DNA of 64,000 nt from Alistipes sp. (GTDB lineage: Bacteria; Bacteroidota; Bacteroidia; Bacteroidales; Rikenellaceae): the NCBI GenBank assembly GCA_017520545.1, contig JAFXFM010000002.1, forward strand, positions 124,001 to 188,000. The letters run 5' to 3'. The translations under genes were made by a program, and so were the position numbers. The notes beneath the pieces were generated by a model that did no database searches, had not been told where the DNA came from, and worked only from the letters and a program-made list of their open reading frames with translations. Below are positions 59,064 to 63,306 of this stretch, piece after piece. The stretch's first letter is position 1, and every line of letters begins with the position of its first letter.

Positions 59064-59222
59064 ATGAAGCGAACAACTGTTGCGGAGTATATTACTCCAA
59101 GCGTGGAGGTCCTCTCGGTTAAGGTCGAGGCGGGCTTCTTTGTATCGCAGAATCCTGACTTGACCTATGGTGGAGCAGGAGAGGCCGGTGCAATTGGTGA
59201 TGGTAATTCGTACGAACTTTAA
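59064..59222 (+). CDS. Small peptide (52 residues), unknown function
   Basis: ATG at 59064, stop TAA at 59220-59222. The sequence opens MKRTTVAEYITPSVEVLSVKV..., continues EAGFFVSQ... and ends in a Gly/Ala-rich, acidic tail (GGAGEAGAIGDGNSYEL). It has the look of the short Bacteroidales peptides with a 'TPxVEVL' start and an 'EAGF' junction followed by a small-residue tail, found upstream of surface lipoproteins; function not known. No Cys, no classical signal peptide. Ends 15 bases before the lipoprotein start, so coupled with it. Too short to be found by standard cut-offs. Confidence 0.65.
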   Translation: MKRTTVAEYITPSVEVLSVKVEAGFFVSQNPDLTYGGAGEAGAIGDGNSYEL

Positions 59223-59237
59223 AAACTGTGCAATGCT

Positions 59238-62123
59238 ATGAAGAAGATCTTTACAAAATTGATGCTTTTGGCAGTTGCAGCAGCTGCATTAGTATCGTGC
59301 GAGAACAAATTTGAGGAGCAGACACCTGTTGTCGAGCTCACACAGACAGTAACTCTCTCGGCGGAGAAGCCTACACAGGTTCGTACCGAATTGATCGAGG
59401 GCGTTCCATATTGGAGCAAGGGCGATCAGATTGGTGTTTACGTTCAGGATGGCGAGACCTACAAGAACTATGCATTCAAGAACGACAGCGAGGAGGCATC
59501 GCTTACCACTTCGTTCACCGGAACAACTGCGGTAGCAAACACTCTCTTTGTTTACTATCCTTACACCAATTTCACCACCCCTGTTACCGAGGATGGTGTT
59601 AAGGTTGAGATTCTTGCAAATCAGGAGCCTACTGCTGCATCGTTCGATGGCAGAACAGACCTTATGATTGCAAAGCCTGTAACTCTTGATGCCGAGGGCA
59701 ACCAACTTTCGGATTTGGAGTTTGCTCGTGTGGCAGCAATCGTTAAAATTGTGTTGAAGGATAAGACCGGCAACTTGGCTGATCAGCACGTATCGTCTTT
59801 GACTATGACCGCAGAAACCAACCTCGTAGGTCGCGTTTATCTCGATGTTGTAAATCAGAAGATTAACAGCGAGAAGGGCTTGTACTACGGAGGTGCTCCG
59901 AGCGTAACTGCAACCTATACCGAGGCTACACAGTACGAGGTTAATGGCACAAACGCAACCTATCTCGTTGTCTATCCGCAGACTTTGGCTACTGGCTCGA
60001 AACTTTCGTTCGAGGCTGTAACCGAGGGCTACGCTATCTCGAAGGAGATTACATTGCCAAGCGACATCGAGTTGTTGGCAGGCAAGGTTACCACTTTGAA
60101 TGTATCGCTCGCAGCAGAGAATGTTGTTAAGGAGGAGGCCGGTCTTGCATTGCCATTCAAGGATGACTTCGCTCGTGTTGCTTATGATGCAGGCGAGGGA
60201 GGTATCGATCTCTCTGTTTTGGGCGAGAACTACTCGGCAATGGATAAGGTTTACAAGGCAAAGGTTGGCAATGGTGGTATCCTCAAACTCGGAACTAGCA
60301 CGGCAGAGGGATACTTTACAACTACCGCACTCGATCTTTCGAAGCCATTTACCGTATTTGTTGAGGCACAGCGTTATGGTACCAGCACTTCGGATAAGTT
60401 GCAGATTACTGTTGGTTCGCAGGTTCTGACTTCGACTAACTTGACAGCAGACTCAAAGTACTACGTATTCGAGTTCGAGGCAGCAAGCAAGAAGGAGCAG
60501 GTTGAGATTCGCACCATCAAGCGTGCTTATATCAACGACTTGCAGATTGTTGAGGGACACGGTCTTGATGTACCAACACTCCCTGCTGTATTGACCGTAA
60601 ATGTTGAGTCGATTACAAGCATTTCGCACGAGGGCGAGAATGTTACTTTTGAGTACTCGGTTGCAAACCCTGTTGAGGGTACAAGCGTTGTTATCACCGC
60701 CGATGCAGAGTGGCTTACAATTGCCGACAACAATGGTTCTGTTACTGTAACCGTTGAAGCAAACGAGGCTGAGGAGGCTCGTAATGCAACTATCACTGTT
60801 AAGTACGGCGACCTTACCGAGACTATCGCTATTCAGCAGAACGCTAAGCCTGCCGAGGGTGGTGGCGACACAGAAGAGACAGGTTGGGTACGTGTAACAT
60901 CGCTTGCTGATATCACAAGCGGTACTTATGTTATCGTTGCAACAGCATCGGGTGCAGACTACTACTGTCCAAACTCGACATTCCAATCGTCCACCCATCC
61001 AAAGGCTGTAAAACTCTCTGATAAGAGCGTTTCGGTAAGCGGAGATAAACTCACTGGTACTATTATCGACGATATGAAGTGGACATTTACTGGTACCGCT
61101 TCGAATATGGTAATTACTAAGTACAACGCTACAACACAACTTTACAACACTGGTGCAAATAATGGTGTTTGGGTTGCTACCCCATCGACTGCTTCGTACT
61201 GGAAATTTACCGTAACAGGCTCTAACTTCCTTGCAACTTACAACGCTACAGGCCGTTGCCTCGGTACTTATAATACTCAGGACTGGCGTTCTTACTTGGA
61301 TACAGCGTTAAATAACTACTCGAACACGAATGGTGAGATTCGTCTCTACAAACTCGTTGGAGAGGAAGGTGGCGAGGGTGGCGAGACCCCAGAGACCCCT
61401 GCTCCGGAGTTGGCTATAACCACAACTTCTCCTATTGCTGTTGGTGCAGAGGGCGATGTTGCAACCGTAGCCTACACCATTACAAACCCTGTTGAGGGCA
61501 AGAGCGTAACTGCTTCGGCTGATCAGACTTGGGTTAATACGTTCGACTATACCGTAGCAGGCGAGGTTTCGTTTACAGTTGATGCAAACACCGGCGCAGC
61601 ACGTGAGGCAACCGTAACACTCGCATACGATGGTGCAGAGAGCAAAACCATTAAGGTTTCGCAGGCTGCCGGTAATACCGGTGGCGACGAGGGTGGCGAG
61701 GCTACTCCAGAAACAAAAACCATTTCATTTACTGGAGGTTCGGGAACAAATGAGGACACAATAAGTTTTACATCTGTTAGCCCATTGTCTTGCGTAATTA
61801 CCAAAAATGGAAATCAAACATCTCCTCGATTAGATGCCAATATGGTGCGTATGTATGCAAGCGGTGGCAAATCAAATAAGATGACTATTACAACCACATC
61901 TTCCCCAAAGAAGAAGATTACCAAAGTTGTAGTAACAGCAACATCAGGTAGTTATGCAACGGCATTGGGTGATGGTTCGGCAACTGTTGATAGTGGTGCT
62001 TCGGTTTCAATCGCAACAAGTGGTTCAACCGTAACATATACCATTACTGGTAACACAGAAACCATTGAGATTCTTACAAGCGGTCAGGCTCGATTGAGCA
62101 AGGTTGATGTAACTTATCAATGA
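59238..62123 (+). CDS. Multi-domain surface lipoprotein (fimbrillin-like, BACON and beta domains), ending at an in-frame TGA
   Basis: 961 residues with lipobox LVSC (Cys 21). Order of domains: fimbrillin-like 30-300; a beta domain about 305-445 ('LPFKDDFARVAYDAGEGG...LQIVEG'); a BACON domain about 455-540 ('ISHEGENVTFEYSVANPVEGTSVVITADAEWLTI'); a small-beta domain 550-700; a second BACON about 720-805; a final beta domain about 825-961 ending 'KVDVTYQ'. Several acidic Gly-rich linkers (EEGGEGGETPETP). It stops at TGA (62121-62123), but the same frame goes on into a Gly/Ser/Pro linker and a nuclease (next entry). Confidence 0.75.
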   Translation: MKKIFTKLMLLAVAAAALVSCENKFEEQTPVVELTQTVTLSAEKPTQVRTELIEGVPYWSKGDQIGVYVQDGETYKNYAFKNDSEEASLTTSFTGTTAVANTLFVYYPYTNFTTPVTEDGVKVEILANQEPTAASFDGRTDLMIAKPVTLDAEGNQLSDLEFARVAAIVKIVLKDKTGNLADQHVSSLTMTAETNLVGRVYLDVVNQKINSEKGLYYGGAPSVTATYTEATQYEVNGTNATYLVVYPQTLATGSKLSFEAVTEGYAISKEITLPSDIELLAGKVTTLNVSLAAENVVKEEAGLALPFKDDFARVAYDAGEGGIDLSVLGENYSAMDKVYKAKVGNGGILKLGTSTAEGYFTTTALDLSKPFTVFVEAQRYGTSTSDKLQITVGSQVLTSTNLTADSKYYVFEFEAASKKEQVEIRTIKRAYINDLQIVEGHGLDVPTLPAVLTVNVESITSISHEGENVTFEYSVANPVEGTSVVITADAEWLTIADNNGSVTVTVEANEAEEARNATITVKYGDLTETIAIQQNAKPAEGGGDTEETGWVRVTSLADITSGTYVIVATASGADYYCPNSTFQSSTHPKAVKLSDKSVSVSGDKLTGTIIDDMKWTFTGTASNMVITKYNATTQLYNTGANNGVWVATPSTASYWKFTVTGSNFLATYNATGRCLGTYNTQDWRSYLDTALNNYSNTNGEIRLYKLVGEEGGEGGETPETPAPELAITTTSPIAVGAEGDVATVAYTITNPVEGKSVTASADQTWVNTFDYTVAGEVSFTVDANTGAAREATVTLAYDGAESKTIKVSQAAGNTGGDEGGEATPETKTISFTGGSGTNEDTISFTSVSPLSCVITKNGNQTSPRLDANMVRMYASGGKSNKMTITTTSSPKKKITKVVVTATSGSYATALGDGSATVDSGASVSIATSGSTVTYTITGNTETIEILTSGQARLSKVDVTYQ

Positions 62124-63239
62124 TCTTCGGGTAGTGGGTCAGGAGGGGCAACCCCTCCTGCCACGGACCCTACCCCGGGATTAACTAACATATCGGCTTC
62201 GCTTAACGGCACTTTGGCGTCGGCGGGTTGCGAGGTGGAGAGCCCGGAGTATATAACTAACGGAGTTGTAACGTTCCACTTCATAAGCTCTTCGCACTCG
62301 ACATCGGCAACCTACAACGTAGGCACAACACAAACCTACGCGCAGGTGTGCAACGTGCAGTTGGAGGCGGCTACGACCTACTCGGTCTACGCTTCGTGCA
62401 CCGCAACAAACGGCACCGCTGTAACATCGACAACTACAACGCTGACAACGCCCGTACCTGTGGTTATGCCAAGCGAAAGTTGGCTCGAATTGCCGGCGAT
62501 TAGCAATAGTTCGCTCTATCCGAACGCACAAGAGTTGAAGGTTGAGGCGAGTGGTGTGCGCAACTACACCGCCTACTACGACAACTCGACCTACACCTCG
62601 ATGTGGGTGGCATATCCGCTCCAATCGAGCCATATGGGTTCGTTCGCGCGCCCGTCGAAGTGGTACTACAACCCACTCATAGCGACAAGTGAGCAGGTAA
62701 ACCTCTGCGACCACTCCTACGAGGGCGATACATACTCACGCGGACACCTTATTCCGAACGCCTCGCGCAACGGAAACGAGGAGATGCAGTTGCAGACTTT
62801 CTACGTTACCAACTCGGTACCGCAGGTGCAAAACAGCTTCAACAGCGGAGTGTGGAGCAGCCTCGAAAGCGCATTGCAGAGCGAGGCAGCAAGCGAGACA
62901 ATCTACATCGTAACGGGTGTAGCCTTCAAGAAGGTAGGCGAGACAAAGTCGGTGTCCTACATTCAGGCAACCGACGACACCAAGCAGATACCTATACCAA
63001 ACTACTTCTACAAAGTAGCGTTGAAGGTGAAGACCAACAGCAGCGGAACGGTAACATCGGCATCGACAGTAGGTTTCTGGTTCGAGAATAAGGCCTACTC
63101 CGACGTCTACACCAACTACTCGGTAACGGTGGATCAGGTGGAGCAATGGACAGGTTTCGACTTCTTCGCCAACCTCCCCGACAATATAGAGGTAACGGTG
63201 GAGAGCAGTAAAGATTGGAATGCATTCTTGGCGTTCTAA
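62124..63239 (+). pseudogene. DNA/RNA non-specific endonuclease domain continuing in frame after TGA, without its own start
   Basis: Directly after TGA the frame encodes SSGSGSGGATPPATDPTPG, a Ser/Gly/Pro linker, then a fibronectin-like beta domain ('TNISASLNGTLASAGCEVESP...'), then an endonuclease NUC domain: 'YSRGHLIPNASRNGNEE' (His of the usual DRGH, here SRGH), 'YVTNSVPQVQNSFNSGVWSSLE' (metal-site Asn) and 'EQWTGFDFFANLP'. About 371 codons to the stop at 63239. No ATG start before the nuclease region: the first in-frame Met is near 62467, after the beta domain. So it is most likely the C-terminal part of the upstream lipoprotein, cut by a nonsense codon or made by stop read-through. Confidence 0.7.
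62140..62160. repeat. AGGAGGGG hairpin just after the in-frame TGA
   Basis: CAGGAGGGG (62140-62148) pairs perfectly with CCCCTCCTG (62152-62160) over a CAA loop. It begins 16 bases downstream of the TGA and lies inside the open frame. It resembles the hairpins at 5334-5363 and 6424-6453, which also follow stop codons. Confidence 0.7.
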
Positions 63240-63266
63240 AATCGTTCTGATTGGTGAAATTCCATA

Positions 63267-63306
63267 AACAAGATGGGTATCGAAAACGATACCCATCTTG
63301 TTTTGC
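63267..63306. terminator. Strong bidirectional terminator
   Basis: AACAAGATGGGTATCG (63267-63282) pairs perfectly over 16 bases with 63287-63302, AAAA loop, followed by a T run. It separates the nuclease from the convergent acyltransferase. Confidence 0.8.

What the first reader, a model, noticed from the sequence alone, without database searches (positions are those of the whole stretch)
59238..63239. Large lipoprotein whose frame continues across an in-frame TGA into a nuclease, with a stem-loop just after the stop
Seen: the 961-residue lipoprotein frame stops at TGA (62121-62123), the same frame is then open for about 371 codons, starts with a Ser/Gly/Pro linker of coding character, and includes a beta domain and a NUC endonuclease domain. 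No ATG precedes the beta domain. A perfect 9-bp GC-rich stem-loop begins 16 bases after the TGA. Known: stem-loops in that position can promote read-through or recoding (bacterial SECIS elements, for example). Inference: either a recent nonsense mutation in a lipoprotein-nuclease fusion, or regulated read-through that decides between a binding-only and a nuclease-bearing surface protein. The simpler reading is a nonsense mutation. The hairpin also belongs to a small family that follows other stop codons here, which weakens the recoding idea.
Basis: partly seen in the sequence, partly recalled or inferred. Interest (0 to 1): 0.75.

Follow-up and report, generated by a model that had tools for sequence, protein, structure and literature searches.

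The report
Conserved UGA read-through linking lipoprotein and nuclease
In gut bacteria related to Alistipes, a stop codon followed by a conserved RNA hairpin lies between a surface lipoprotein and a nuclease in dozens of genomes, which strongly suggests that ribosomes are meant to read through it now and then and make a rarer nuclease-bearing form of the protein.

Summary
The same layout (exported lipoprotein, in-frame stop, Gly/Ser/Pro linker, Endonuclease_NS domain without its own start or signal peptide) occurs at 58 sequence-distinct loci, two of them in a cultured Alistipes isolate. The inner stop is TGA at 57, TAG at 1, TAA at 0; TGA ends only 45 of 353 other long ORFs there. A hairpin starts 5-7 bases after the stop, in two main sequence classes. 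Class 1 shows clear compensatory change; class 2 weakly. Synonymous divergence just after the stop is lower than further on in 12 of 13 pairs. The extension is under purifying selection (dN/dS 0.09-0.37 in 11 finite pairs). Codon adaptation falls after the stop in 50 of 56 loci, but not in stop-less fusions. SelB was found in 0 of 268 family genomes. Best explanation: programmed UGA read-through, helped by the 3' hairpin, giving a minority of lipoprotein molecules a C-terminal nuclease. All evidence is comparative; expression was not tested. My paper searches found no such conserved, structure-linked read-through family in bacterial chromosomes outside selenocysteine.

The parts
59238..62123 (+). 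Lipoprotein ORF (961 aa): lipoprotein signal peptide, BACON domains, other beta modules; ends VTYQ-TGA. Codon adaptation (EF-Tu reference) second highest of 37 window ORFs of 250 aa or more
62121..62123 (+). In-frame UGA, proposed read-through codon; preceded by CAA (second base A, as in 55 of 57 loci)
62129..62170 (+). 3' RNA element (class 1): outer stem 62129-62132/62167-62170, middle stem 62134-62137/62161-62164, upper stem 62140-62148/62152-62160, loop 62149-62151; covarying among relatives
62124..62177 (+). Gly/Ser/Pro linker (SSGSGSGGATPPATDPTP), coding frame that overlaps the RNA element; low synonymous divergence
62178..62447 (+). Beta domain of the extension (residues 19-108)
   Evidence: AlphaFold2 model; fold not named
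62556..63182 (+). Endonuclease_NS domain (DNA/RNA non-specific endonuclease)
62124..63239 (+). Proposed read-through extension, 371 codons, no signal peptide, stop TAA 63237-63239
   Evidence: (rule run on named relatives)
63266..63303 (+). 17-pair terminator-like hairpin after the nuclease; none listed just after the TGA
   Evidence: 5 terminator-like sites found, 4.2 expected; this one is by far the longest

Best explanation
Programmed stop-codon read-through. Most ribosomes end at the UGA and release an abundant exported lipoprotein. A 17-pair interrupted hairpin that starts 5 bases after the UGA, about where mRNA enters the ribosome, hinders termination, so that a minority of ribosomes decode UGA with a near-cognate tRNA (tRNA-Trp CCA is the likeliest; inferred) and go on through a flexible linker into a beta domain and a nuclease. 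The nuclease is thus exported and anchored only as a rare C-terminal extension of the lipoprotein. Shown by comparison: conserved UGA, conserved covarying RNA, conserved frame, purifying selection downstream, lower codon adaptation downstream. Inferred: that read-through occurs, its rate, the residue inserted, and the use of the nuclease (cutting extracellular nucleic acid).
For: Inner stop TGA at 57 of 58 loci, TAG 1, TAA 0, against TGA at 45 of 353 other long ORFs of the same loci. Class 1 RNA, 21 sequences: 30 cells with both sides of a pair changed against 8.9 in shuffles (0/500), covariation score 0.261 against at most 0.108 when slid. Fold energy below the mean of synonymous-codon reshuffles in 51 of 52 loci then known; mean z -1.99/-1.69/-1.76 for class 1/class 2/variants, controls at codons 60+ -0.58/-0.33/-0.04. 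dS of the first 20 codons below the rest in 12 of 13 pairs (for example 0.056 v 1.66, 0.057 v 0.431, 0.061 v 0.814). First 22 codons: a stop in frame 0 at 0 of 57 loci, in +1 at 34, in +2 at 51. dN/dS 0.09-0.37 in the 11 of 13 pairs where finite. Of 43 named lipoproteins 37 show an export signal by a simple rule and the other 6 are cut by a contig end; 0 of the 43 extensions show one. Codon adaptation higher upstream in 50 of 56 (p 1.3e-9), in 6 of 17 stop-less fusions. Two such loci in the isolate CHKCI003. Terminator-like site after the nuclease, none listed just after the TGA.
Against: No transcript, protein or reporter evidence. The base after UGA is not special (A22 T16 G13 C6). Covariation of the class 2 first hairpin is weak (2 cells; shuffles reach it 8 of 500). 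Only 30 of 52 loci are individually at p<=0.05 in the synonymous-codon test, L178 goes the other way (z +1.05), and some control stretches are also strongly folded (L139 -3.79, L179 -3.16). In class 1 the number of pairs with a double change (5) is no more than shuffled (4.4). One locus has TAG (L180, contig cut 107 codons upstream), and in L187 the frame breaks 197 codons after the TGA near a contig end. Loci are related, so p-values overstate independence. PMC11126739 (passages) found no correlation between predicted mRNA structure and read-through in E. coli reporters. Most family genomes lack the element: class 1 model 31 of 268, two of these false on inspection; class 2 model 13 of 268.
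Confidence: 0.86

Rival explanations
1. Recent nonsense mutation or decaying pseudogene of a lipoprotein-nuclease fusion.
For: Fusions without a stop exist among the relatives (18 of 77 named loci).
Against: 58 sequence-distinct loci keep the stop; dN/dS 0.09-0.37 in 11 finite pairs and no further frame-0 stop in the first 22 codons of 57 loci; hairpin at the same place.
Confidence: 0.01
2. Selenocysteine insertion: UGA plus SECIS-like hairpin.
For: The position of UGA and hairpin resembles bacterial SECIS (recalled).
Against: SelB in 0 of 268 family genomes, 110 of them at least 90% complete and at most 5% contaminated, while the same search finds it in E. coli; no tRNA-Sec over the cut-off in the own genome; no Rfam match at E<=1; one TAG variant.
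Confidence: 0.01
3. Termination followed by re-initiation in the linker, or separate initiation at a non-AUG codon, giving a free nuclease.
For: A TTG-started ORF can be drawn from 62214.
Against: The product would lack an export signal (0 of 43), unlike the relatives with their own gene (29 of 30 by a simple rule, L131 by eye). Among the named loci that could be sorted, all 44 without their own signal lie in the lipoprotein's frame (3 fragments set aside). A cytosolic nuclease would be expected to harm the cell (inference).
Confidence: 0.05
4. Ribosomal bypassing (stop-hop) over the hairpin, as in T4 gene 60 (recalled).
For: A hairpin directly after a stop; in class 1 the element ends in a conserved GACCCTACCCCGGGA-like stretch.
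Against: The codon before the stop varies (14 different codons in 52 loci), so there is no fixed take-off/landing pair; the hairpin itself is kept as an open coding frame.
Confidence: 0.04
5. The hairpin is a DNA recombination site by which the nuclease cassette moves between lipoproteins, and the TGA is only the end of the old lipoprotein.
For: High DNA identity between the window and L116 starts 10 bases before the TGA; lipoproteins and nucleases vary on both sides of the element.
Against: One copy in the own genome; the frame and export arguments still require translation through the stop; pairs are kept by compensatory change within a coding frame.
Confidence: 0.03

Closest known systems
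Viral and eukaryotic programmed read-through with a 3' RNA structure (MuLV gag-pol; Drosophila cases)
   Same: In-frame leaky stop, structured RNA a few bases after it, minority C-terminal extension
   Different: Here a bacterial chromosome, lipoprotein plus nuclease, two RNA classes, UGA nearly fixed. Seen: passages of PMC5009743, search listing of PMC13170385; Firth 2011 (extended 3' RNA elements) seen only as an entry in a reference list, not held
Bacterial SECIS/selenocysteine recoding
   Same: UGA followed at once by a hairpin within the coding frame
   Different: No SelB found in the family, no Rfam match, one TAG variant
In-frame stops in bacterial genes suggested to be read through (Belinky 2021, PMC7918605)
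   Same: In-frame stops kept with dN/dS below 1
   Different: That paper (abstract and passages seen) has no hit for Bacteroid-, Alistipes, nuclease, hairpin or secondary structure; here a defined RNA element recurs at one place
Q-beta leaky UGA giving the extended coat protein (recalled; PMC8067240 seen in a listing only)
   Same: Leaky UGA yields a rare extended surface protein
   Different: RNA phage, not a bacterial gene family
Endonuclease_NS nucleases (NucA, EXOG, EndoG)
   Same: E 1.7e-18 to the nuclease chain 2o3b_A
   Different: Apparently made as a read-through extension of a lipoprotein

Membership tests
Programmed stop-codon read-through | Stop codon kept in place across diverged homologues | tested here: met
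   57 TGA + 1 TAG of 58 loci
Programmed stop-codon read-through | Coding signature in the extension | tested here: met
   dN/dS 0.09-0.37 in 11 finite pairs of 13; frame-0 stop in the first 22 codons 0 of 57
Programmed stop-codon read-through | Conserved cis-element near the stop | tested here: met
   Class 1 covariation, 0/500 shuffles; class 2 weaker
Programmed stop-codon read-through | Extended product detected | not testable with these tools
   No expression data
Selenoprotein with SECIS | SelB present | tested here: not met
   0 of 268
Selenoprotein with SECIS | tRNA-Sec present | tested here: not met
   Own genome only: best 41.8 bits, cut-off 47, and that place is tRNA-Ser by ARAGORN; genome 92% complete
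UGA-reassigned genetic code | UGA no longer an ordinary stop; tRNA with UCA anticodon | tested here: not met
   UGA ends 45 of 353 other ORFs; none of 36 tRNA genes has UCA, Trp is CCA; the list lacks Ala, Ile and Phe, so it is incomplete
Endonuclease_NS | Pfam PF01223 above its cut-off; RGH, N and E residues | tested here: met
   127.5 bits against 23; R206 G207 H208, N230, E248 invariant in 22 sequences; their catalytic role is recalled
BACON lipoproteins | Lipobox signal peptide and BACON domain | tested here: met
   Window: signal by eye, BACON 3.7e-14. Of 7 relatives scanned, 4 had BACON above the cut-off
Pseudogene | Relaxed selection or further disabling changes | tested here: not met
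   one frame break in L187

The most novel reading that the evidence does not exclude
A dedicated bacterial recoding element: a portable RNA cassette (UGA plus hairpin, at least two classes) used like SECIS but without SelB, which sets the ratio of bare to nuclease-bearing surface lipoprotein, may respond to conditions, and is exchanged between lipoproteins upstream and nucleases downstream.
Probability: 0.45. Interest if true: 0.95.

Novelty: new variant of a known kind. Interest (0 to 1): 0.87.

Why it matters
Read-through as a conserved, programmed device is well known in viruses and some eukaryotes. My searches (open-licence PMC only) listed no bacterial chromosomal family of it with a conserved RNA element outside selenocysteine. 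Here the evidence spans dozens of gut genomes and includes a cultured isolate, so it can be tested directly. It would show how bacteria can tune the dose of an exported enzyme through translation, and it means that gene callers will split or discard such genes.

Tried and rejected
A strict DNA pattern in the own genome found only the known site. Class 2 model over 393 order genomes: 5 weak matches, none with the layout. Exact patterns of the two classes in viral contigs: 0 and 0. Rfam over 501 bases round the site: nothing at E<=1. False matches of the class 1 models, dropped: L084, L218, L219, L220, L221. L187 was left out of the tree as too short, L185 out of the fusion codon test, and one locus failed its length filter. 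L203, L207 and L208 are L168, L180 and L187 by contig position and are not counted again. Both the quick tree and the careful tree (bootstrap not settled) place the read-through loci in several parts of the nuclease tree; the careful one needs 8 label changes, at least 5 on well-supported branches. My first stop-codon background (86 TGA of 394) wrongly included the lipoproteins themselves; Fisher p 4e-31 (56 of 57 against that background) rests on it; the corrected background is 45 of 353. The sorting rule missed L178 and L187, which I reassigned by eye; L190, L191 and L192 (fragments or remote) were set aside.
Full report
WHAT IS THERE. The window holds a 961-aa lipoprotein ORF (59238-62123) ending in TGA, then 371 open codons in the same frame (62124-63239) with a Gly/Ser/Pro linker, a beta domain and an Endonuclease_NS domain. 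A long terminator-like hairpin lies after the nuclease at 63266-63303, and none was listed just after the TGA.

IT IS NOT UNIQUE. A search of 61 genomes (own plus 60 relatives) with the nuclease part led to four other loci with the same layout. A covariance model built from the window and three of them was run over 180 genomes of the genus: 34 had a match at E<=0.1. Of the 30 loci fetched, 29 have the layout, all with TGA (L079 after a 3-base shift); L084 is a false match. A search that does not depend on the hairpin, with a nuclease alignment against named genomes, gave 77 loci. They sort into 44 with lipoprotein-stop-nuclease (43 TGA, 1 TAG: L180), 18 direct fusions without a stop, 12 separate genes with their own signal, and 3 fragments or remote sequences (L178 and L187 reassigned by eye). 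The two sets overlap; 52 loci were distinct by the sequence round the stop: 22 of class 1, 22 of class 2, 8 variants. A class 2 model over 268 family genomes matched 13, in two genera; five of these were new loci. One more came from the isolate genome. Total 58: TGA 57, TAG 1, TAA 0. Distinct here means by sequence; I did not check whether two assemblies of one species are among them.

WHOSE GENES. Named carriers are Alistipes, Tidjanibacter, Rikenellaceae and unclassified Bacteroidales (one labelled Bacteroides), mostly metagenome assemblies from ruminant hindgut. G063 also carries the second locus L217, so metagenome assembly error does not explain the finding. PMC4882955 (search listing with the start of the abstract) describes six cultured chicken-cecum isolates and holds that strain name in its abstract.

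WHY READ-THROUGH. (1) Stop choice: TGA at 57 of 58, against 45 of 353 other long ORFs of the same loci; the final stops of the same genes are TAA 30, TAG 13, TGA 8, one cut off (52 loci then known). A single transition would give TAA, the commonest stop, and it was not seen. (2) RNA: on 21 of the 22 class 1 sequences (L159 left out as shorter), 30 cells have both sides of a pair changed with the pair kept, against 8.9 in shuffles, and the covariation score is 0.261 against at most 0.108 for slid partners; the count of pairs with such a change (5) is no higher than shuffled (4.4). Class 2 (22 sequences) pairs in 96% of cells, with 2 double changes in its first hairpin and more in a second small one. 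(3) The fold is stronger than its own amino acids would give: 51 of 52 loci lie below the mean of synonymous reshuffles, 30 of 52 individually at p<=0.05. The 60 bases after the stop have median -28.1 kcal/mol, against -10.7 after 348 other ORFs; at or below -18 are 55 of 58 against 73 of 348. (4) Synonymous divergence of the first 20 codons is below that of the rest in 12 of 13 pairs, while dN/dS of the whole extension is 0.09-0.37 in the 11 finite ones. L150/L152 is saturated throughout, and L206/L211 has dN above dS in the first 20 codons. (5) Frame: no frame-0 stop in the first 22 codons at any of 57 loci; 34 and 51 have one in the other frames. Over 250 codons one locus has one, which is L187, broken 197 codons after the TGA near a contig end. 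(6) Export: of 43 named upstream ORFs (L187 not run) 37 show a signal by a simple rule and the other 6 run to a contig end; 0 of the 43 downstream parts do. (7) Dose: codon adaptation to EF-Tu falls after the stop in 50 of 56 loci, while in stop-less fusions it is higher upstream in 6 of 17. In the window the lipoprotein ranks second of 37 ORFs (0.510, median 0.330) and the nuclease part scores 0.373. The reference is one EF-Tu gene of one genome, so the scale is rough for distant species.

A FURTHER SIGNAL. The codon before the stop has A as its second base in 55 of 57 loci, against 176 of 353. It may be part of the recoding context or a by-product of the usual C-termini of these beta domains; I cannot tell which.

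MODULARITY. Window and L116 are 87% identical in DNA from 10 bases before the TGA onwards, yet their lipoproteins are 43% identical over the first 541 residues and differ at the C-terminus. Nucleases behind the element are diverse: seven scanned, chosen over the range, are all Endonuclease_NS. The careful tree of 86 nucleases needs 8 changes of the read-through label. So the UGA-hairpin is flanked by exchangeable parts on both sides. The own genome holds one copy, which speaks against a shuffling site within the genome.

MECHANISM. Selenocysteine is excluded as far as these genomes can tell: SelB 0 of 180 and 0 of 268, with E. coli as a positive control; no tRNA-Sec over the cut-off in the own genome. 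None of the own genome's 36 tRNA genes has anticodon UCA; Ala, Ile and Phe tRNAs are also missing from that list, so the assembly (92% complete) may lack others. tRNA-Trp has anticodon CCA, five anticodon-stem pairs with G-U at the top, and A at position 24 by my own reading of the fold. That position is the classical UGA-suppressor change of E. coli (recalled; PMC13092985, passages, speaks of G24A as shown to facilitate UGA read-through). A near-cognate Trp tRNA is therefore my candidate, unproven.

NOVELTY. Paper searches covered open-licence PMC only. PMC7918605 (abstract, passages) argues for frequent read-through in bacterial genes from dN/dS, without this case. PMC5009743 (passages) says that no bacterial RF2 gene uses same-frame UGA read-through, and describes MuLV read-through with a pseudoknot. 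PMC11126739 (passages) measured read-through in E. coli reporters and found no correlation with predicted structure, which is a caution. PMC8211752 (passages) speaks of read-through in archaea as selenocysteine and pyrrolysine.

LIMITS. All evidence is comparative. Loci are related by descent and recombination, so p-values are descriptive. The inserted residue, the rate, any regulation and the use of the nuclease are inferences.

Noticed in passing
window 59064-59222 (+): Small ORF of about 52 codons (MKRTTVAEYITPSVEV...GGAGEAGAIGDGNSYEL), read by eye, directly upstream of the lipoprotein; short ORFs ending in ...GEAGDDFGTGDYGDF and ...GEAGDKYDDIYNGIF precede the fusions in L119 and L133. My note gave its coordinates slightly wrong.
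   Followed up: no
G000:C6:56992-57759, C6:16207-16839, C13:89183-89746, C7:6145-6837: Four other matches to the nuclease in the own genome, with no stop inside the match.
   Followed up: no
G028:C8:4434-5144 and G029:C24:119096-119806; L021, L028: Nuclease matches with an internal TAG or TAA inside the match itself; perhaps ordinary decay, not examined.
   Followed up: no
window 62111: Start of high DNA identity to L116 ten bases before the TGA: a module boundary at the read-through element.
   Followed up: partly
L217 3854-4681: Second UGA-hairpin nuclease locus in the genome of the cultured Alistipes sp. CHKCI003, with a distant nuclease.
   Followed up: yes
L180 324-326: The only locus with TAG in place of TGA, on a contig cut 107 codons upstream.
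   Followed up: partly
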